This document shows positions 40,915-50,396 of a DNA stretch of 64,000 bases, piece by piece. The DNA comes from Solirubrobacter phytolaccae. Its GTDB lineage: Bacteria; Actinomycetota; Thermoleophilia; Solirubrobacterales; Solirubrobacteraceae. The notes under the pieces are model-generated. The model was given only the letters and a program-made list of their open reading frames with translations. It made no database searches and was not told the DNA's origin. Made by a program: the position numbers and the translations under genes. Within the stretch, counting starts at the first letter, position 1; the number at the start of each line of letters is the position of its first letter. Where the stretch lies: assembly GCF_027587195.1 (NCBI RefSeq), contig NZ_JAPDDP010000028.1, forward strand, positions 1 to 64,000, in the 5' to 3' direction.

Positions 40915-42540
40915 TCAGCCGATCAGGAAGCGCCCGGAGAAGGCGAGCGACTCGACCGGTGGCGCGTCGACCGGCTCGCCGTCGAGCGTGACCGCGTAGG
41001 TCCGCGGGTCCACGCGGACCTCGCCCTGGCGGTCGTTGTGAAGCATGTCTGCGGCGGTGAGGTCGCGGCAGCCCTCGACGCGCGCGCGGCGGCGCACCGT
41101 GGGCAGCTCGGCGTCCATCGCGCTGCCGGCGAGGAACGCGAGCGAGTTGCGCGCGGCGGCGCCGCCGATGCCGCCCACCTGCGGGCGAACGCGCACGGGC
41201 TCGGCGAGCATCGTCGTGGCGTTGCCGTCACCCGAGGCGCCCCACGCGGCCATCCCGGCCTTGATCACGAGCTCCGGGCGCACGCCGACCAGCGACGGCT
41301 GCCAGAGCACGGCGTCGGCGAACCGGCCAGGCGTCAACGCGCCCACGTGGCCCGCCAGCCCGTGCGTCAAGGCCGGGTTGATCGTGACCTTGGCGATGTG
41401 GCGCAGGACGCGCGCGTTGTCGTGCGCGCCCTCGCCGCCGCGGACGGCCTTCATCCAGTCCGCGTTCTGCAGCGCGCGGCGCACGACCTCGCCCGCGCGG
41501 CCCATGCCCTGCGAGTCCGACGACATCATGTGGATCACGCCGAGGTCGTGGAGCACGCCCTCGGCGGCCATCGTGCGGGCCCGCACGCGCAGATCCAAGA
41601 TGGCGAGGTCGCCGCTGCGACGGCTCGGGTCCAGCAGGTGCACGGCCTCGACCATCGCGCGGCCCTCGGCCTCGGTCCCCGGGCCGAACGGGAGGCCCGG
41701 GTTGGTCGAGGAGGTCAGCACGCGCTCGCGCCCGGCCAACGCGAGCAGGTCGGGAGCGTGGCCGCCGCCGCAGCCCTCGATGTGGAAGGCGTGGATCGTC
41801 CGGCCGCCGAACGCGGCGAACGTCTCCTCGACCGAGATCGCCTCGTTCAGCCCGTCGGTGTGGATCGCGAGCTGGACGTCCTCGGCGTCGCAGATGTCGA
41901 GTGCCGTGCGGATCTGCTCGGGCCCGGCGGCGACGTCCTCGTGGATCTTCAGCCCGGCGCCACCCGCGCGCAGCGCGTGCAGGACGGGCTCCTGGCGCGC
42001 CGAGGAGCCGCGGACGAGCAGCGCGGCGTTCAAGGGGTAGGCATCCAGAGCCGCCCACGCGGTCTGGAGCAGCTCGGGCGGGTTGCAGCCGAGGTTCCAG
42101 ACCGGACCGGGGTCCTGGATGACCAGCGTCGTCAACCCACCCGCCAATGCCGCATCCGCGACCTGCGGCGACAGCCAGTGCACATGCGTGTCGATCCCAC
42201 CGGGCGTGACGATAAGCCCGGCGGCGTCGTGCACCGCGGTCGCCGTGTCCAGCACGACGTCGATCCCGTCCATCGTGTCCGGGTTGCCCGCCCGCCCGAC
42301 GCTGACGATCCGGCCGTCATTGATGCCGATCGAGGCGTAGCGCACGCCGAGCACGGGGTCGATCAGCAGCCCGCCGGTGATCGCGACCTCGACGCCGCCG
42401 CGCTCGGCGCGCACGCCGAGCCCGTCACGCATCGTGCCGCCCCAGCCGGGGACGATCGCGTCCGGCTCGCCCTCGGGCTCGAGCCACAGATCACTGTCGG
42501 CGAGGCGGACGCGGTCAGGCACCGCGGTACCCCCGCTCAC
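40915..42540 (-). CDS. urease alpha subunit-like metallohydrolase, divergent
   Basis: About 541 residues (535 if the GTG at 42522, which has GGGGG before it, is used). All nickel ligands of urease are kept: His119 and His121 in DTHVHW, Lys198 (carbamylated) in GLKIHED, His227 in AIHTD, His253 in AFHIEG, and Asp342 in SSDSQGMGR; His200 and His301 match the substrate-binding and general-acid histidines. The active-site flap cysteine is Val300. The loop that reads GGGTGPA...TTCTPGPW in true ureases is replaced by VIQDPGPVWNLGCNPPE. It is about 30 residues shorter than normal. Cotranscribed with fused gamma-beta and agmatine deiminase genes. No UreDEFG genes are nearby. The substrate may be a substituted urea. 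Confidence 0.85.
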   Translation of the reverse strand: MSGGTAVPDRVRLADSDLWLEPEGEPDAIVPGWGGTMRDGLGVRAERGGVEVAITGGLLIDPVLGVRYASIGINDGRIVSVGRAGNPDTMDGIDVVLDTATAVHDAAGLIVTPGGIDTHVHWLSPQVADAALAGGLTTLVIQDPGPVWNLGCNPPELLQTAWAALDAYPLNAALLVRGSSARQEPVLHALRAGGAGLKIHEDVAAGPEQIRTALDICDAEDVQLAIHTDGLNEAISVEETFAAFGGRTIHAFHIEGCGGGHAPDLLALAGRERVLTSSTNPGLPFGPGTEAEGRAMVEAVHLLDPSRRSGDLAILDLRVRARTMAAEGVLHDLGVIHMMSSDSQGMGRAGEVVRRALQNADWMKAVRGGEGAHDNARVLRHIAKVTINPALTHGLAGHVGALTPGRFADAVLWQPSLVGVRPELVIKAGMAAWGASGDGNATTMLAEPVRVRPQVGGIGGAAARNSLAFLAGSAMDAELPTVRRRARVEGCRDLTAADMLHNDRQGEVRVDPRTYAVTLDGEPVDAPPVESLAFSGRFLIG

Positions 42541-43174
42541 GGGCGAGCACCAGCGCGGCGTCGAGAGCGCCGACCTCGTCCAACGGTCCGTCGACGAGCC
42601 CGCCGTGACCGCGCACGACCCGCGCGCCCGCGATCGGCACCAGCCGCACGGTCACCGGCTCGCCCGGCACGAACACGACCTTCGCGCCCGGCGCGATCGC
42701 CAGTCGCAGCCCCCAGGCCGCGGCGCGGTCGAAGCGCAGCACGCGGTTGGTCTCGAAGAAGTGGAAGTGCGACGTCACGGCGACGGTGACCTCACCCTCG
42801 TTGACGACCTCCAGCGCGACGCCGTCCTCGACCCACTCGGGCGGCACGTCCACCGCTTCCGGCGGCCCGTCGCGCCGGATCGGGTCGTGGAGCACGACCA
42901 GCCGGTGCCCGTCGGTGAACAGCGGCTCGACCTCCACGCGCGGCACGGCGTCGGCGACGCCTTCGAGCACGTCGGCCTCACCCAGCACGCCGTAGCCGAA
43001 GGCCTGCACGTCGGCGTACGAGCGCCCGTCGCGCGCCGCCTCGCACACCTCGTCGGCGATCAGCGCGACCGCCTCGGCCTGCGTGAGCTTGAGCCCACGC
43101 GCGCGGCGCTTACGCGCGAGCTCGCCCGCCAGGAACAGCAGCAGCCGGTCTTCCTCGCTCGGGAGCAGCCGCAT
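42515..43174 (-). CDS. fused urease gamma-beta subunit-like protein
   Basis: A 219-residue fusion. Residues 1-98 are the gamma domain (LLPSEEDRLLLFLAGELARKRRARGLKLTQAEAVALIADE and DVQAFGYGVL...RVEVEPLFTDGHRLVVLHDPI). Residues about 115-219 are the beta domain (VTSHFHFFETNRVLRFDRAAAWGLRLAIAPGAKVVFVPGE). Such fusions exist in Helicobacter and some actinobacteria. The start ATG shares one base with the agmatine deiminase stop, and the end overlaps the alpha gene, so all three are translated together. It would form the structural part of the hydrolase with the alpha subunit. Confidence 0.9.
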   Translation of the reverse strand: MRLLPSEEDRLLLFLAGELARKRRARGLKLTQAEAVALIADEVCEAARDGRSYADVQAFGYGVLGEADVLEGVADAVPRVEVEPLFTDGHRLVVLHDPIRRDGPPEAVDVPPEWVEDGVALEVVNEGEVTVAVTSHFHFFETNRVLRFDRAAAWGLRLAIAPGAKVVFVPGEPVTVRLVPIAGARVVRGHGGLVDGPLDEVGALDAALVLARERGYRGA

Positions 43175-44178
43175 CAGACCGCCGGCTCCTGCTGGGTGAT
43201 GCAGTGGATGCCGCCGCCCCGCGCGAACAGCGGCCGCGCGTCCACGAGCTCCACGCGCCGCCCGGGGTACGCGTCGGCCATGATCGCCGCGGCCCGCGCG
43301 TCGGCCTCTTCCTCCCCGAACCCGCACAGGATCACGCCGCCGTTGACGAGCGTGTGGTTGATGTAGCTGTAGTCGACGGGGCCGTGCTCGTCGTGCGTGA
43401 GCCGCGGCGCCGGCACCTCGATCACCTCGAGCTGCTCGCCGCGCAACTGGTCGGCGATCGCGCGCGAGACCTCGTAGTCGGGGTGCCCCGGGTCGTCCTG
43501 GCGATGGACGAGCACGCGACCCGGCGCGCAGAACGTGGCGACGATGTCCACGTGCCCGCGCGTGCCGAACGCGTCGTAGTCGCGCGTGAGCCCGCGCTCG
43601 AGCCAGATCACGCGCTCGGCGCCGATCGTCCGCGCCAGCTCGGCCTCCACGCGCGCGGCGTCCCAGTCGGGGTTGCGCCCCGCGTCGAGCTGCACCGTGC
43701 GCGTGATCAGCGCCGTGCCCGCGCCGTCGACGTGGAGGCCGCCGCCCTCGTTCACCAACGGCGAGTCGAACACCGGCACGCCGGCCTGCGACGCCACGAA
43801 CCGGGCGACCCGCGCGTCGTGCTCCCACGACGCCCACTCCTGCGCGCCCCAGCCGTTGAAGATCCAGTTGATGGCCGCGAGCTCACCCGCCTCGTCGAGC
43901 ACGAACGTCGGCCCGATGTCCCGCATCCAGGCGTCGTCGAGCGGCGTGTGCACCACGTTCACGCGCGGGTCCAGATGGCGCGCGGCGTCCGCCACCGCGA
44001 CCGGGTCGACGACCATCGTCACCGGCTCGAAGGCGAGGATCGCGCTCGCGACCGCGGCCCACGTCGTCCGCGCCTCCTCGGGCTCGTCGCCGAGCGTGTA
44101 GCCGGACGACGGCCACGCCATCCACGTGCGGGCGTGCGGCGCCCACTCGGGCGGCATGTGGAATCCGGACTCGGGCAC
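43174..44178 (-). CDS. agmatine deiminase family protein
   Basis: A 334-residue guanidine-modifying enzyme (GTG start; an ATG seven codons later is possible). Agmatine deiminase converts agmatine to N-carbamoylputrescine plus ammonia. Active-site blocks are visible: EWAPHARTWMAWP, DDAWMRDIGPTFV, NEGGGLHVDGAGT, GHVDIVATF and the nucleophile Cys326 in GGGIHCITQQEP. A peptidyl-arginine-deiminase-like relative is the alternative. First gene of the operon with the urease-like subunits. Divergent from the PolX-like gene by about 20 bases. Confidence 0.9.
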   Translation of the reverse strand: MPESGFHMPPEWAPHARTWMAWPSSGYTLGDEPEEARTTWAAVASAILAFEPVTMVVDPVAVADAARHLDPRVNVVHTPLDDAWMRDIGPTFVLDEAGELAAINWIFNGWGAQEWASWEHDARVARFVASQAGVPVFDSPLVNEGGGLHVDGAGTALITRTVQLDAGRNPDWDAARVEAELARTIGAERVIWLERGLTRDYDAFGTRGHVDIVATFCAPGRVLVHRQDDPGHPDYEVSRAIADQLRGEQLEVIEVPAPRLTHDEHGPVDYSYINHTLVNGGVILCGFGEEEADARAAAIMADAYPGRRVELVDARPLFARGGGIHCITQQEPAV

Positions 44179-44198: not shown

Positions 44199-45773
44199 GT
44201 GGTTGTGGACAACGCCGCCCTCGCCGACCAGCTCGACGCGTTCGCGGCGCTGCTCGAGCTCGCGGAGGCGAACGCCTACCAGGCGCGGGCGTACCGGCGC
44301 GCGGCGGAGCTGATCCGCGCCACGCCGGTCCCGGTCGAGGACCTCATCCGCAGCGGCCGTGTGCGGGAGCTGCGGGGGATCGGCGCGGGGATCGAGGGGC
44401 GGCTGCGGGAGCTGGTCGAGACCGGCTCGATCGCGGAGCTGCGCGAGCTCGAACGCGAGCTCTCCCCCGGGCTGATCGGCCTCGGCCGCTTCCTCGGGCT
44501 CACGACGAAGCGGTCGGTCGAGCTCGCGAAGGCCCTCCGGGTACGCACGCCGGACGAGTTCCGCGAGGCTGTCGCCGGCGGACGGCTGCGCGACGTGCCG
44601 GGCGTCGGCCCGAAGCTCGAGGCGCGCATCAAGGTGGCGCTCGAGCGCACCGATGCGCGCAGCGGCCCGACCGTGCTGCTCAACCGGGCGAAGACGCTCG
44701 TGGACGGGATCGCCGCCGCGCTCGACGGTGAGGCGGCCGGCGACACGCGTCGTTGGCACCACGCGCCGACGCGGCTGGCCGTGGTGAGCGCCGCCCCCGA
44801 TGCGCTCGCGCGCTTCGAGGCGCTCCCGCAGATCGTCGCCATGATCGAGGGCCACTGCGGGTTGACGGTCGAGGGCATCCCCGTCGAGCTCGTCGTCGCG
44901 CCACCCGAGCGCTTCGGCACCGCGTTGCTCCAAGCCACGGGATCGCCGGAGTACCTGGCCGCGCTCGGCCCGCTCCCCGACGCCCCGACCGAACGCAGCG
45001 TCTACGAGGCCCTGCGCCTCCCGTTCGTCCCGCCCGAGCTGCGCGAGGCGCCGTTCACCGGCGAGCCACCGCGTCTGCTCGAGCAGGCCGACATCCGCGG
45101 AGACCTGCACACCCACACGACCTGGTCCGACGGCCGCTTCAGCGTCGAGGAGATGGGTCGCGCGGCCCGCGACCGCGGCTACGACTACCTCGCGATCTGC
45201 GACCACACGCCCGCGGTCGGCGCCGTGAAAGGCCTCACCGGCGATGACGTCCGCCGCCAGGGCGAGGAGATCGCCGCGGCCAACGAGCGCCTGGCGCCGT
45301 TCCGCATCCTGAAGGGGATCGAGTGCGACATCCTGCCCGACGGCCGGCTCGACCTCCCCGACGACGTGCTGGCTGAGCTTGACTGGGTCCAGGCCAGCGT
45401 GCACGGCGGCCAGCGGATGCCGAAGGCCGAGATGACCAAGCGCGTCGCCGAGGCGTTGCAGCACCCGTCGGTCAGCTGCCTCAGCCACCCCAAGGGCCGG
45501 ATCATCGGCCGCCGGCCCGAGAACGCGCTGGACCTCGAGGCGATCTTCCCGATCGCGCGCGAGCACGACGTCGCGCTCGAGGTCAACGGCCTCGCGCCCC
45601 GGCTGGACCTCAGCGGCGAGCACGTCCGCGCGGCGCTGCAGGCGGGCGTGAGGATCGTCTGCTCCACCGACGCGCACTCGATCGACAGCCTCGCGACCAT
45701 GACGCTCGCCGTCCACACCGCCCGCCGCGGCGGCGCCACCGCCGCGGACGTCGTCAACACCCGCCCGCTCTGA
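44199..45773 (+). CDS. PolX-family protein with HhH and PHP domains but no polymerase catalytic motif
   Basis: A 524-residue protein, shorter than bacterial PolX (about 570). GTG 44199 or 44205 is the start. Residues 1-80 are the DNA-binding 8-kDa-like domain with helix-hairpin-helix (RELRGIGAGIEGRLREL), and a second HhH is RLRDVPGVGPKLEARI. The palm region aligns (LARFEALPQIVAMIEG, VELVVAPPERFGTALLQATGS), but the G-S-x-R-R...G-D-x-D motif holding two catalytic aspartates is missing: WHHAPTRLAVV stands in its place. The third Asp is Glu. The PHP domain from about 303 is complete: DLHTHTTWSDG, CDHT, GIECDI, ASVHGG, SHPKGR, EVNG, STDAHS. It is probably a nuclease or phosphoesterase and not a polymerase. 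Confidence 0.88.
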   Translation: MVVDNAALADQLDAFAALLELAEANAYQARAYRRAAELIRATPVPVEDLIRSGRVRELRGIGAGIEGRLRELVETGSIAELRELERELSPGLIGLGRFLGLTTKRSVELAKALRVRTPDEFREAVAGGRLRDVPGVGPKLEARIKVALERTDARSGPTVLLNRAKTLVDGIAAALDGEAAGDTRRWHHAPTRLAVVSAAPDALARFEALPQIVAMIEGHCGLTVEGIPVELVVAPPERFGTALLQATGSPEYLAALGPLPDAPTERSVYEALRLPFVPPELREAPFTGEPPRLLEQADIRGDLHTHTTWSDGRFSVEEMGRAARDRGYDYLAICDHTPAVGAVKGLTGDDVRRQGEEIAAANERLAPFRILKGIECDILPDGRLDLPDDVLAELDWVQASVHGGQRMPKAEMTKRVAEALQHPSVSCLSHPKGRIIGRRPENALDLEAIFPIAREHDVALEVNGLAPRLDLSGEHVRAALQAGVRIVCSTDAHSIDSLATMTLAVHTARRGGATAADVVNTRPL

Positions 45774-45774
45774 G

Positions 45775-46716
45775 TCAGCGCGTGCGGTCGAGCTCGTCGG
45801 CCACGGTGCGCATGTGCGTCTCCAGGCCGGCCAGCAGCTCGCGCACACCCGGGGTGAGCCGGGCGCCGGCCCGGGTGATGATCGCGAAGGTGTCGAACAG
45901 CGCGGGCTGGAAGGACGCGGTGCTCAGGCCGGCGGGGAAGTACGGCGCGTGGATGAACGCGCTCGGCAGGTAGGTGTCGCCGACGCCGGCGGCCACGAGT
46001 CGCAGCGCGATGTCCTTGAGCTCGACCTCGACCTTGGGCTCCAGGCGCAGCCCGAGGGCCTGGGCGCGCTCGGCGAGCTGGCGCCGGATCGGGTCGTTGT
46101 CGGCCGACTCGGCGTCGTAGAAGATCAGCGGCGTCGTGGCCAGGCGCTCGATCGTGGCGGGCTCACGGGTGCGCTCGGGGTCGGCGCTGACGTAGATGAC
46201 CTCGTCGCGGACGATCGGGCGCACGTCGAGCTTGTCGTCGTCGATCGGGAGCGCCACGAGCGCGGCCTCCAGCTCGCCGCGGCGGACGCGGTCGGCGATC
46301 ACCGACGAGTTGCGGCCGACCAGGCGCACGGACACGTTCGGGTGGCGCTGAAGGAAGCTGACGACGAGCTCGTCGAGCCGCCACGCCGACGGTCCCCCGA
46401 AGATCCCGAGCGCGACCGTGCCCGTGCGCAGCTCGGTGAGCTCCCCCACGCTGTCGGCCGCGTCCTCGACGGCGCGCAGGCTGCGCGTGGCGTGCTCGGC
46501 GAACGCGCGCCCCGCTTCCGTCGCCACCACGCCCCGGCCGGCGCGGACGAACAGGCTCGCGCCGAGGGTCTGCTCGAGCTTGCGGATCTGCTCGGCCACG
46601 GCGGGCTGGGACACGCGCAGGGTCTCGGCCGCGGCGGTGAACGAGCCGAGCTCGAACGCGGCGCAGAAGCAACGGAGCTGTTGCAGAGACAAAAGCTCAG
46701 CTTTGGATTGCGCCAA
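45775..46716 (-). CDS. LysR family transcriptional regulator
   Basis: A 313-residue LysR protein. The winged helix-turn-helix is LLSLQQLRCFCAAFELGSFTAAAETLRVSQPAVAEQIRKLEQTLGASLF-like, shown here as residues about 9-57, followed by the linker and periplasmic-binding-like effector domain (TGTVALGIFGG...). The TTG at 46716 is the furthest start; another TTG eight codons later is possible. Divergent from the amine oxidase operon with 38 bases between, so it very likely controls that operon in response to its substrate. Confidence 0.92.
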   Translation of the reverse strand: MAQSKAELLSLQQLRCFCAAFELGSFTAAAETLRVSQPAVAEQIRKLEQTLGASLFVRAGRGVVATEAGRAFAEHATRSLRAVEDAADSVGELTELRTGTVALGIFGGPSAWRLDELVVSFLQRHPNVSVRLVGRNSSVIADRVRRGELEAALVALPIDDDKLDVRPIVRDEVIYVSADPERTREPATIERLATTPLIFYDAESADNDPIRRQLAERAQALGLRLEPKVEVELKDIALRLVAAGVGDTYLPSAFIHAPYFPAGLSTASFQPALFDTFAIITRAGARLTPGVRELLAGLETHMRTVADELDRTR

Positions 46717-46754
46717 GCGATTGAGGCTACCTGTCCGGGCGCGCGTGCAGAACC

Positions 46755-48080
46755 ATGGTCGCCATGACTCGGGATGTGGTGATCGTCGGCGGTGGGATCG
46801 CCGGCCTGTCGGCGGCCTGGCGACTGCGCCACCGCGACGTGCTGCTGCTGGAGGCCGGCGATCGACTCGGCGGCCGGATGCGCTCGGACCCCTGCGGCGA
46901 CTACTGGCTCAACTACGGCGCGCACCTGTTCCCCGCGCCCGGCACGCTCGTGGACCGCATCACGCACGAGCTCGGGCTCGAGACCGTCCCCGTGACCGGC
47001 GGGATGATGGGGCTCGCCGTCGACGGCACGATCCTCGACGGCGGCCGCGTGGAGAGCTACCCGTTCCGGCTGCCGCTGTCGGTGCGTGAGCGGGTCGCGT
47101 TCGCGAAGGCCGGCGTGAAGGTCCAGCTCGCCGTCCGCCGTTACCACGCCGCGCCCAACCGCTACGAGTTCGAGAACGACCGCACGTTCGCCGACTTCCT
47201 CGGCCCGCTCCCGCCGAAGGTGCACGAGATCTTCGCCTGCGCCGCCCACCGCGCGACGGGCGAGCTGGACGAGCTGGCCGCGGGCGCCGGCATCGGGCTG
47301 TTCGCGCTGGTGTGGGCGGGCAAGGGCTCGCTGATCGCGCGCAACCTGCGCGGCGGCACCGGGATGCTCCCGGCCGCGATCGGGCGTGAGCTGGGCGAGC
47401 GCGCACGCGTGGACAGCCGGGTCGACGCGGTTCGGGAGGACGGCGACGTGCTGGTGGTCAGCGTCGGCGGCGAGGAGATCCGCGCGCGGCAGGTGATCAT
47501 GGCCGCGAACGCGCCCTACGCCGCGCCGCTCGTCGCGGCCGTCGCCGAGCAGGCCGCCGACGCGCTCTCCCGCCTCACCTACGGCGCGTTCCTCAGCGTC
47601 GCGATCGAGACGAACGAGACGACCGCGATGCCCTACGACGGCGTCTACGCGGTCGCCACGCCCGGCCGCGTGTTCGACATGTTCACCAACCAGGCGCACG
47701 CGCTGCGCGTCGGGCCGCGCCGCCCCGGCGGGAGCCTGATGCTGTTCGCCGGCGCGCAGCGGGCGGCGGCGCTGATGCGCGAGAGCGACGCGGTGATCGC
47801 CGAGCGCTTCCTCGCCGACCTGCACGCGATGTACCCGCAGACCCGCGGCGCGATCGCCAACGCCACCGTGCGCCGCTGGGAGCTGGGCAACGTCTATGCC
47901 AGCCCCGGCCGCGGCGCGCTCCAGCCCGCGCTGGAAGGCGCCCTCGGCGCCCACGAGAACCTGCACCTGGCCGGCGACTACTTCGCCGAGCTGGGGACGA
48001 TGGAGGCCGCCGCCCAGACCGGGCTCGCCGCGGCTGAGCGCGTCGAGTCCCGAATCCGAGAGGCCATTACGCATGTCTGA
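46755..48080 (+). CDS. FAD-dependent amine oxidase / protoporphyrinogen-oxidase-like protein
   Basis: About 441 residues (438 if ATG 46764 is used, which puts the FAD motif at the usual distance). The N-terminal Rossmann motif is VVIVGGGIAGLSAAWRL, then LLLEAGDRLGGRM, the second family signature. The C-terminal FAD contact is LHLAGDYFAELGTMEAAAQTG. It belongs to the flavin-containing amine oxidoreductase family, which includes monoamine and polyamine oxidases. First gene of a four-gene operon; it overlaps the DapA-like gene by 8 bases. Oxidation of an amine to an aldehyde for the downstream dehydrogenases is the simplest reading. Confidence 0.85.
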   Translation: MVAMTRDVVIVGGGIAGLSAAWRLRHRDVLLLEAGDRLGGRMRSDPCGDYWLNYGAHLFPAPGTLVDRITHELGLETVPVTGGMMGLAVDGTILDGGRVESYPFRLPLSVRERVAFAKAGVKVQLAVRRYHAAPNRYEFENDRTFADFLGPLPPKVHEIFACAAHRATGELDELAAGAGIGLFALVWAGKGSLIARNLRGGTGMLPAAIGRELGERARVDSRVDAVREDGDVLVVSVGGEEIRARQVIMAANAPYAAPLVAAVAEQAADALSRLTYGAFLSVAIETNETTAMPYDGVYAVATPGRVFDMFTNQAHALRVGPRRPGGSLMLFAGAQRAAALMRESDAVIAERFLADLHAMYPQTRGAIANATVRRWELGNVYASPGRGALQPALEGALGAHENLHLAGDYFAELGTMEAAAQTGLAAAERVESRIREAITHV

Positions 48081-48954
48081 TTTTCACGGCGTCCTGCCCG
48101 CGCTGATCACCCCGTTCACCGCGGACGGGAGCGCGATCGACACCGAGGCGCTCGAGGCCGTCGTCGAGCGCCTGATCGGCGCCGGCGTGGGCGGCCTCGT
48201 GCCCGGCGGCAGCACCGGCGAGTTCACGACGCTGAGCACCGCGGAGCGCCGGCAGCTGACCGAGGTGGTCGTCGAGGCCGCCGCCGGCCGCGTGCCCGTC
48301 GTCGCCGGGACGGGAGCGCTCTCGACCGCGGAGACCGTCGCGCTGAGCGTCCACGCCGAGCAGGCCGGCGCGGCCGCGGTGATGGTCGTGCCGCCGTTCT
48401 ACGACGCGCTGTCCTGGCGCGAGCTGCAGGCCCACTACGGCGCGGTCGCGGACGCCATCTCGATCCCGATCATGTACTACAACCTGCCGTCGGCGACCGG
48501 CGTGAACCTCACCGCCGAGCAGCTGCGCGCGCTGCCGATCGGGTGCCTGAAGGACACGGGCGGCGACGCGACCGCCGCGCAGGAGCTGATCCAGACCGAC
48601 GGCCCGACGCTGCTCAACGGCTGGGACACGCAGACCTTCGTCGCGCTCGCCTCGGGCGTGCAGGCCGTCGTCTGGGGCACGGCCTCGATCATCCCGGAGC
48701 AGTGCGTCGAGCTGCATCGCCTGCTGATCGACGACATCGACCTCCCCACGGCGCGTGAGCTGTGGGCGCGGATCTGGCCGCTGTGCCAGTTCCTCGAGAG
48801 CGTGAGCTACCCCGCCGCGATCAAGGCCGGCGCGACGATCACGGGCTTTACGACCGGTCCGGTCCGCGCGCCGCTGCTCCCGCTCGAAGCCGACGCGCAG
48901 CGCGAGCTGGCCGCCGCGATCGCGTTCGCGACCGCCGCGGAGACCGTGCGATGA
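48073..48954 (+). CDS. dihydrodipicolinate synthase / N-acetylneuraminate lyase family protein
   Basis: A 293-residue class I aldolase-type TIM barrel. The Schiff-base lysine is Lys160 in GCLKDTGGD and the catalytic tyrosine is Tyr136 in MYYNLPSATG. The glycine-rich motif GGLVPGGSTGEFTTLS replaces the GTTGE block of true DapA. Being in a catabolic operon, it is more likely a pyruvate-dependent lyase, aldolase or dehydratase than the lysine biosynthetic DapA. It overlaps both neighbours (8 bases before, 4 bases after). Confidence 0.87.
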   Translation: MSDFHGVLPALITPFTADGSAIDTEALEAVVERLIGAGVGGLVPGGSTGEFTTLSTAERRQLTEVVVEAAAGRVPVVAGTGALSTAETVALSVHAEQAGAAAVMVVPPFYDALSWRELQAHYGAVADAISIPIMYYNLPSATGVNLTAEQLRALPIGCLKDTGGDATAAQELIQTDGPTLLNGWDTQTFVALASGVQAVVWGTASIIPEQCVELHRLLIDDIDLPTARELWARIWPLCQFLESVSYPAAIKAGATITGFTTGPVRAPLLPLEADAQRELAAAIAFATAAETVR

Positions 48955-50396
48955 GCACCGCGACCACGATCGCCTTCCGCAACCTCGTCGGCGGCGAGCT
49001 GGTCGACGCGCTCGACGGCGGGATCCGCGACGTCGTCAACCCGGCGAGCGGCGAGGTGATCGGGCGCGTACCCGAGGGCACCCAGGCCGACGTCGAACGC
49101 GCGGTCGGCGCGGCGCGCGCGGCGCGGACCGGCTGGCGCGACACGACTCCCGGCCAGCGCCAGGAAGCGCTGCTCGCCCTCGCCGACGCCGTCGACCGGC
49201 ATGCCGACGAGCTCGCCGCGCTCGAGGTCGCCAACGTCGGCAAGCCGCGCTCGCTCGCGGCCGAGGAGCTGCCGATCTGCGCGGACGAGCTGCGCTTCTT
49301 CGCGGGCGCCGCGCGCACGCTGCACGCGCCCGCAGCGGGCGAGTACAGCCCCACGCACACGTCGTTCGTCCGCCGCGAGCCGGTCGGGATCGTCGGCCAG
49401 ATCGCGCCCTGGAACTACCCGCTGATGATGGCGATCTGGAAGCTCGCGCCCGCGCTGGCCACCGGCAACGTGGTCGTGCTCAAACCGTCCGAGCTGACGC
49501 CGCTGAGCACGCTGCGCCTCGCCGAGCTGGCCGCGGAGATCCTCCCGCCCGGCGTGCTCAACGTCATCACGGGCGAAGGTGATCCGGTCGGGCGCGGGAT
49601 CGTCACGCACCGTGACGTCGCGCTCGTCTCGCTGACGGGCAGCGTGCCCGCCGGCAAGTGGATCGCGCAGGCCGCGGCCGACACGCTCAAGCGCGTGCAC
49701 CTGGAGCTCGGCGGCAAGGCGCCGGTCGTCGTGCTGGATGACGCCGACCCGGCCAAGGTCGCCGCCGGGCTGCGCGTCGCGAGCTTCTGCAACTCGGGCC
49801 AGGACTGCACCGCGGCCACGCGCGTGCTGGCCACGCCGGGCGTCTACGACGCGCTGCTCGAGGAGCTGGTGCCGACCGTCGCCGCGCTGCGGGTCGGCGA
49901 CCCGGCCGAGGGCGACGCGATCGAGATGGGACCCGTCGTGTCGGAAACCCAGCAGGCGCGGATCCTCGGCTTCCTGGACCGCGCGGTCGACGGCGGCGCC
50001 AACCTCCTGCTCGGCGGCTCCACGGGCCGCGCGACGGGCGCGTTCGTCGAGCCGACGATCGTCACCGGCGTCGGGCAGGACGCCGAGATCGTCCAGCGCG
50101 AGGTGTTCGGGCCGGTCGTCACCGTCCAGCGCGTCGCGGACGCCGACGAGGCGATCCGCCTCGCCAACGACGTCCCCTATGGCCTCGCCGCTTCGATCTG
50201 GACCCGCGATGTCGGCCGCGCGATGAACGCCATCCGGGCGCTCGACTTCGGCTGCGTGTGGGTCAACGACCACCTGCCGTTCCTGTCGGAGATGCCGCAC
50301 GGCGGCTTCAAGGAATCGGGCTACGGCAAGGACCTGTCGACGTACGCGCTCGACGACTACACGCGCGTCAAGCACGCGATGATCAACCTGGACTGA
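48951..50396 (+). CDS. aldehyde dehydrogenase, aminobutyraldehyde-dehydrogenase-like
   Basis: A 481-residue NAD(P)-dependent aldehyde dehydrogenase. Catalytic Cys286 lies in NSGQDCTAATR; the general-base Glu is in HLELGGKAP. The C-terminal block MPHGGFKESGYGKDLSTYAL with DYTRVKHAM is characteristic of gamma-aminobutyraldehyde dehydrogenases (PatD/YdcW type), which make 4-aminobutyrate from the putrescine oxidation product. Its ATG overlaps the DapA-like stop (ATGA). Fits an amine to acid pathway with the amine oxidase. Confidence 0.88.
   Translation: MSTATTIAFRNLVGGELVDALDGGIRDVVNPASGEVIGRVPEGTQADVERAVGAARAARTGWRDTTPGQRQEALLALADAVDRHADELAALEVANVGKPRSLAAEELPICADELRFFAGAARTLHAPAAGEYSPTHTSFVRREPVGIVGQIAPWNYPLMMAIWKLAPALATGNVVVLKPSELTPLSTLRLAELAAEILPPGVLNVITGEGDPVGRGIVTHRDVALVSLTGSVPAGKWIAQAAADTLKRVHLELGGKAPVVVLDDADPAKVAAGLRVASFCNSGQDCTAATRVLATPGVYDALLEELVPTVAALRVGDPAEGDAIEMGPVVSETQQARILGFLDRAVDGGANLLLGGSTGRATGAFVEPTIVTGVGQDAEIVQREVFGPVVTVQRVADADEAIRLANDVPYGLAASIWTRDVGRAMNAIRALDFGCVWVNDHLPFLSEMPHGGFKESGYGKDLSTYALDDYTRVKHAMINLD

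What the first reader, a model, noticed from the sequence alone, without database searches (positions are those of the whole stretch)
44199..45773. PolX protein that has lost the polymerase active site but kept HhH and PHP domains
The palm region aligns with bacterial PolX on both sides, yet the GSxRRG...GDxD strand that supplies two catalytic aspartates is replaced by WHHAPTRLAVV, and the third aspartate is glutamate (VELVV). All PHP metal-binding motifs are intact. This looks like a DNA-binding phosphoesterase or nuclease descended from a polymerase.
Basis: partly seen in the sequence, partly recalled or inferred. Interest (0 to 1): 0.7.

Follow-up and report, generated by a model that had tools for sequence, protein, structure and literature searches.

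The report
Polymerase-dead PolX nuclease in Solirubrobacter-like bacteria
This gene encodes a former DNA repair polymerase that has lost its DNA-copying active site but kept its DNA-trimming (nuclease) site; this kind of protein was described in 2022, and the new part is that this soil-bacterial lineage seems to have lost copying on its own while keeping a second, intact copy.

Summary
ORF 44199-45773 (+) encodes a 524-aa bacterial PolX with 8-kDa/HhH, palm, truncated fingers and PHP domains. The palm triad Asp198/Asp200/third Asp (Thermus numbering) is Arg192/Ala194/Glu230, and the dNTP site and fingers are degraded. All nine PHP metal ligands are intact.

It is not new in kind. Prostova et al. 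2022 (PMC9226535) described 'noncanonical PolX' (27.5% of their set), with no polymerase activity and Mn-dependent 3'-5' exonuclease shown for Deinococcus proteins.

What I add: (i) 35 orthologues in Thermoleophilia, never DDD, all with 39-aa fingers and PHP HHHEHHEDH; 47 of 299 class genomes carry one, and 34 of 36 checked also hold a second PolX (the window's own is canonical). (ii) With palm and fingers removed, the tree joins this clade to Thermoleophilia's canonical PolX, apart from the Deinococcus/alphaproteobacterial noncanonical clade; a common clade is rejected (AU p 0.024; 0.006 without long branches), favouring independent loss. (iii) The PHP aromatic equivalent to B. subtilis Phe440 is Gln in 35/35; the 8-kDa lyase-type Lys is Arg in 33/35.

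Best reading: a stand-alone 3'-end-processing nuclease on a polymerase-derived DNA-binding scaffold. No activity was tested.

The parts
44199..45773 (+). Noncanonical PolX gene, 524 aa, stop codon included
   Evidence: ORF; PolX homology; 35 orthologues
44208..44648 (+). 8-kDa and helix-hairpin-helix DNA-binding region (about aa 4-150); Lys72-type lyase position is Arg68
   Evidence: Pfam HHH_8 aa 4-77 and HHH_5 aa 104-149; Arg in 33/35 orthologues
44673..44927 (+). Palm (aa 159-243), triad R192/A194/E230, GSxRR changed to GDTRR
   Evidence: Alignments; predicted to keep the Pol lambda palm fold
44928..45047 (+). Shortened fingers (about aa 244-283): steric gate and dNTP-binding Asn replaced, 39 aa against 58-60
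45093..45770 (+). PHP phosphoesterase domain (aa 299-524) with nine intact metal ligands; Phe440-equivalent is Gln405
   Evidence: Pfam PHP; ligands; Q405 in 35/35 orthologues

Best explanation
It is a noncanonical PolX. It most likely arose when a PolX gene of the Thermoleophilia lineage duplicated and one copy lost polymerase function (triad, dNTP site, part of the fingers) while the intact copy stayed in the genome. The protein most likely binds gapped, nicked or broken DNA through its 8-kDa/HhH domains and the folded but catalytically dead palm, and trims or cleans the 3' end with the Mn-dependent PHP site, as a 3'-5' exonuclease and 3'-phosphatase/phosphodiesterase. Gap filling would be left to the second PolX, LigD or another polymerase. 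Shown here: sequence changes, their conservation, the paralogue, tree placement, fold prediction. Inferred: nuclease activity, substrate, role in repair. The fixed Phe440-to-Gln change suggests weak AP-endonuclease activity and a shifted substrate choice.
For: D200-equivalent never acidic in 35 orthologues, fingers 39 aa in all, PHP ligands invariant. Ser of GSxRR is Asp/Glu in 34/35 and the dNTP Asn is hydrophobic. Basic DNA track of the PHP domain kept. Palm folded in the model: aa 155-284 on Pol lambda, Z 13.5, rmsd 2.1 over 130. Purifying selection, dN/dS 0.24 in PHP and 0.39 in palm. Intact paralogue in the same genome. Same changes abolish polymerase but not exonuclease in Deinococcus proteins (PMC9226535). 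Tree: with Thermoleophilia canonicals at 100/100, other noncanonicals at 100/98 elsewhere; common clade rejected, p 0.024 and 0.006.
Against: No activity measured. Phe440-to-Gln could weaken the exonuclease too: F440A cut it 32-fold in B. subtilis. The full-length data set does not reject one shared loss (p 0.415). No repair gene is a conserved neighbour.
Confidence: 0.82

Rival explanations
1. The clade shares one polymerase-loss event with the main noncanonical cluster (Deinococcus, Bacteroidetes, Alphaproteobacteria) and reached Thermoleophilia by horizontal transfer. The function would be the same.
For: Shared GS-to-GD change and third-position Glu with D. radiodurans; full-length AU test p 0.415.
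Against: Trees without the palm and fingers put canonical sequences between the two groups, and a common clade is rejected (p 0.024, 0.006 and, PHP alone, 0.025). Triads and deletions differ in detail.
Confidence: 0.18
2. The PHP site no longer acts on DNA ends and serves another phosphoester, for example a small-molecule or RNA 3' phosphate; the rest is a leftover scaffold.
For: Phe440 position is Gln in 35/35, and the PHP domain resembles YcdX (Z 26.5).
Against: All basic DNA-track residues and the HhH region are kept under purifying selection, and the domain scores highest on PolX models.
Confidence: 0.1
3. It keeps a weak or unusual polymerase or terminal transferase activity through Glu230 and an unconventional metal site.
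For: Glu at the third triad position is kept in 33/35; an earlier report of D. radiodurans PolX synthesis is cited in PMC9226535.
Against: No acid at the D200 position in any orthologue, Asp in the triphosphate pocket, fingers shortened; D. radiodurans AEE and D. gobiensis ARE proteins were inactive when re-tested.
Confidence: 0.03
4. It is a decaying pseudogene or a sequencing artefact.
For: The catalytic triad and fingers are degraded.
Against: Open and full length across the class, dN/dS 0.24-0.41 against L026, PHP ligands invariant in 35/35.
Confidence: 0.01

Closest known systems
Noncanonical prokaryotic PolX, e.g. D. radiodurans PolX (PDB 2w9m, triad AEE) and Mesorhizobium/Bradyrhizobium PolX (Prostova et al. 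2022, PMC9226535)
   Same: Altered triad, shortened palm, degraded dNTP site, GS changed to GD, intact HHHEHHEDH PHP site; same domain order
   Different: Separate clade that sits with Thermoleophilia canonical PolX; fingers deletion of fixed size; Gln at the Phe440 position, where the four noncanonicals compared have Phe; second PolX in nearly all its genomes
Canonical bacterial PolX: T. thermophilus 3au2, B. subtilis PolX, and the C103 paralogue in this genome
   Same: Homologous from end to end; PHP ligands and basic DNA track
   Different: They keep the acidic triad, full fingers, dNTP-binding Asn and usually the Lys72-type residue
PolX-like proteins of Actinobacteria, e.g. M. tuberculosis P96221 (PMC12926913)
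   Same: PolX-type PHP domain without polymerase function, in Actinomycetota
   Different: They lack the whole polymerase region and part of the 8-kDa domain; here both remain. They have Leu at the Phe440 position. Not sisters in the PHP tree (AU p 0.049)

Membership tests
Noncanonical PolX (PMC9226535) | Substituted catalytic triad in the palm | tested here: met
   R192/A194/E230; never DDD in 35 orthologues
Noncanonical PolX (PMC9226535) | Deletions in the palm domain | tested here: met
   82 aa against 96 in canonicals by the same boundaries
Noncanonical PolX (PMC9226535) | Substitutions in the dNTP-binding site | tested here: met
   GS to GD, steric gate to Gln245, Asn279 position to Leu253
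Noncanonical PolX (PMC9226535) | Deletion in the fingers (frequent, not universal) | tested here: met
   39 aa against 58-60
Noncanonical PolX (PMC9226535) | Intact PHP active site HHHEHHEDH | tested here: met
   All nine ligands, 35/35 orthologues
Noncanonical PolX (PMC9226535) | No polymerase activity, Mn-dependent 3'-5' exonuclease | not testable with these tools
   Shown for Deinococcus proteins only
Main monophyletic noncanonical cluster (Deinococcus, Bacteroidetes, Alphaproteobacteria) | Common descent with that cluster | tested here: inconclusive
   Rejected without palm/fingers (p 0.024, 0.006), not rejected with full length (p 0.415); no Bacteroidetes sequence in the tree
Canonical PolX polymerase | Three acidic palm residues | tested here: not met
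   Only the third position is acidic
PolX-like (PMC12926913) | Polymerase region absent | tested here: not met
   Palm present and predicted folded

The most novel reading that the evidence does not exclude
An undescribed, separately evolved subfamily: an in-lineage PolX duplicate in Thermoleophilia that lost polymerase (and probably lyase and AP-endonuclease) function in parallel with the Deinococcus-type proteins, with a re-tuned PHP site (Phe440 to Gln, 'SVHxGQR'), and works beside its intact sister as a dedicated 3'-end nuclease with a different substrate from other PolX.
Probability: 0.45. Interest if true: 0.5.

Novelty: new member of a known kind. Interest (0 to 1): 0.33.

Why it matters
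It adds what looks like another independent case of a repair polymerase turned into a nuclease, and one in which live and dead paralogues of one lineage sit in the same genome; Prostova et al. thought most of their PolX pairs were acquired separately by transfer. The pair gives a clean comparison for asking what the PolX nuclease does without the polymerase, and the fixed Gln at the Phe440 position gives one residue to test for substrate choice.

Tried and rejected
Hidden or displaced aspartates: none conserved at the site. Operon or conserved partner: flanking ORFs of ten altered loci show no neighbour shared across the clade. Link to PolX-like proteins: the PHP tree does not make them sisters; AU only just under 0.05. 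Compensation for a LigD without nuclease: the genome has a Ku-adjacent NHEJ-type ligase with a phosphoesterase domain, so that scenario from PMC9226535 does not apply simply. Ku association: Ku in 44/47 altered versus 153/252 other class genomes (Fisher p 3e-6), but neither kinship nor genome size and completeness was controlled, so it is only a hint. A literature search for Solirubrobacter with PolX found nothing; the supplementary tables of PMC9226535 could not be read, so some of these sequences may be listed there.

Full report
What is there. Window 44199-45773 (+) is a 524-aa ORF in a Solirubrobacter-like genome of 7.74 Mb (class Thermoleophilia; named relative S. taibaiensis 73% identical, same-genus genome 83%). 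Pfam finds HHH_8 and PHP, with the polymerase parts weak or missing. It scores 315 bits on the PolX equivalog model, below the 426 cut-off. The second PolX in the same genome, on contig C103, scores 494 and has GSARRWGDSVKDIDII and KVDLKVV, so it is canonical.

The active sites. Aligned with Thermus and Deinococcus PolX and with about 100 PolX proteins, the triad is R192/A194/E230. The first half of the dNTP motif survives as GDTRR. Across 35 Thermoleophilia orthologues the triads are RAE 14, DAE 4, EAE 3 and twelve rarer forms; position 2 is never acidic; the fingers are exactly 39 residues in all 35 (58-60 in nearly all canonicals); the palm is mostly 7 residues short, 14 in the window protein; the nine PHP ligands are invariant. 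The Ser of GSxRR is Asp/Glu in 34/35, the change also seen in the Deinococcus and three alphaproteobacterial noncanonical PolX compared. The steric gate is Arg/Gln/Val and the N279 position is Val, Leu or Ala in all 35.

Other changes. The position of the Pol beta Lys72-type lyase residue (my knowledge of Pol beta) is Arg in 33/35, against Lys in 70/79 canonicals. The PHP motif III aromatic, B. subtilis Phe440, is Gln in 35/35, Phe in 66/79 canonicals and Leu in PolX-like proteins. F440A in B. subtilis lowers AP-endonuclease 480-fold and exonuclease 32-fold (PMC6616362). The basic DNA track of that paper is kept. These point to a nuclease still built for DNA, but with an altered active-site rim.

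Fold and selection. The AlphaFold model (mean pLDDT 92) matches Thermus and Deinococcus PolX overall; residues 155-284 superpose on the Pol lambda palm/fingers (Z 13.5, 2.1 A over 130) and the PHP part on YcdX (Z 26.5, 1.8 A). Against L026, dN/dS is 0.24 in PHP, 0.25 in 8-kDa/HhH, 0.39 in palm and 0.41 in the fingers-plus-linker stretch. Palm diverges relative to PHP somewhat more than in canonicals (ratio 1.51 against 1.24 and 0.85). So the palm is relaxed but kept: a scaffold rather than a relic (inference).

Distribution. 47 of 299 sampled class genomes encode it. All four genomes of the window's genus in the family sample carry both kinds, while most other genera of the family have only the roughly 40% identical kind. 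34 of 36 altered genomes checked hold a second PolX match; the triads of those second copies were read only for the loci fetched. No neighbouring gene is conserved across the clade.

Origin. With palm and fingers removed, the altered clade sits with canonical Thermoleophilia PolX at 100/100, apart from Deinococcus plus alphaproteobacterial noncanonical PolX at 100/98. Forcing the altered groups together is rejected (p 0.024; p 0.006 without long branches; PHP alone p 0.025). The full-length set does not reject it (p 0.415), but there the converging site itself is included. Independent loss is favoured, not proven. That the closest canonical sister is the L023 type is weakly supported (93/52).

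Known or new. Prostova et al. 2022 define this kind, with 302 triad variants and exonuclease shown for Deinococcus, and say that several smaller groups arose separately; Actinobacteria had only three altered genomes in their non-redundant sample. The NAR 2026 survey confirms it and adds PolX-like proteins (PMC12926913). This case meets every sequence criterion, so it is a new member of a known kind with its own features. Mechanism beyond that is inference from the Deinococcus and Bacillus enzymes.

Noticed in passing
window 44742-44744; loci L126, L127, L129 and PDB 2w9m: The Ser of the triphosphate-binding GSxRR motif became Asp both here and in the separately placed Deinococcus/alphaproteobacterial noncanonical PolX, which looks like parallel change that would repel dNTP.
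   Followed up: partly
window 40915-44178 and 45775-50396: The PolX gene sits between genes that look metabolic: by my reading urease subunits and an agmatine deiminase (below model cut-off) on one side, a LysR regulator, an amine oxidase-like protein, a DapA-like protein and an aldehyde dehydrogenase on the other; possibly an agmatine/putrescine catabolism cluster.
   Followed up: no
G000 contigs C165 and C44 (L004, L005, L006, L159): The genome has three Ku genes, one beside an NHEJ-type ligase with a 3'-phosphoesterase domain; two adjacent Ku genes lie together on C44.
   Followed up: no
L100 and unfetched matches in G348, G393, G319: Proteins of about 345-380 aa match nearly the whole PolX-like model at 224-251 bits, around its cut-off of 250, in another actinobacterial family; L100 has a very long branch in the PHP tree, so PolX-like may be more diverse than described.
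   Followed up: no
L156, L158: Two Thermoleophilia PolX with otherwise canonical sites have Glu at the third triad position, and L158 has Ala in the YFTGS motif; possible early steps of active-site drift, or simply DDE polymerases.
   Followed up: no
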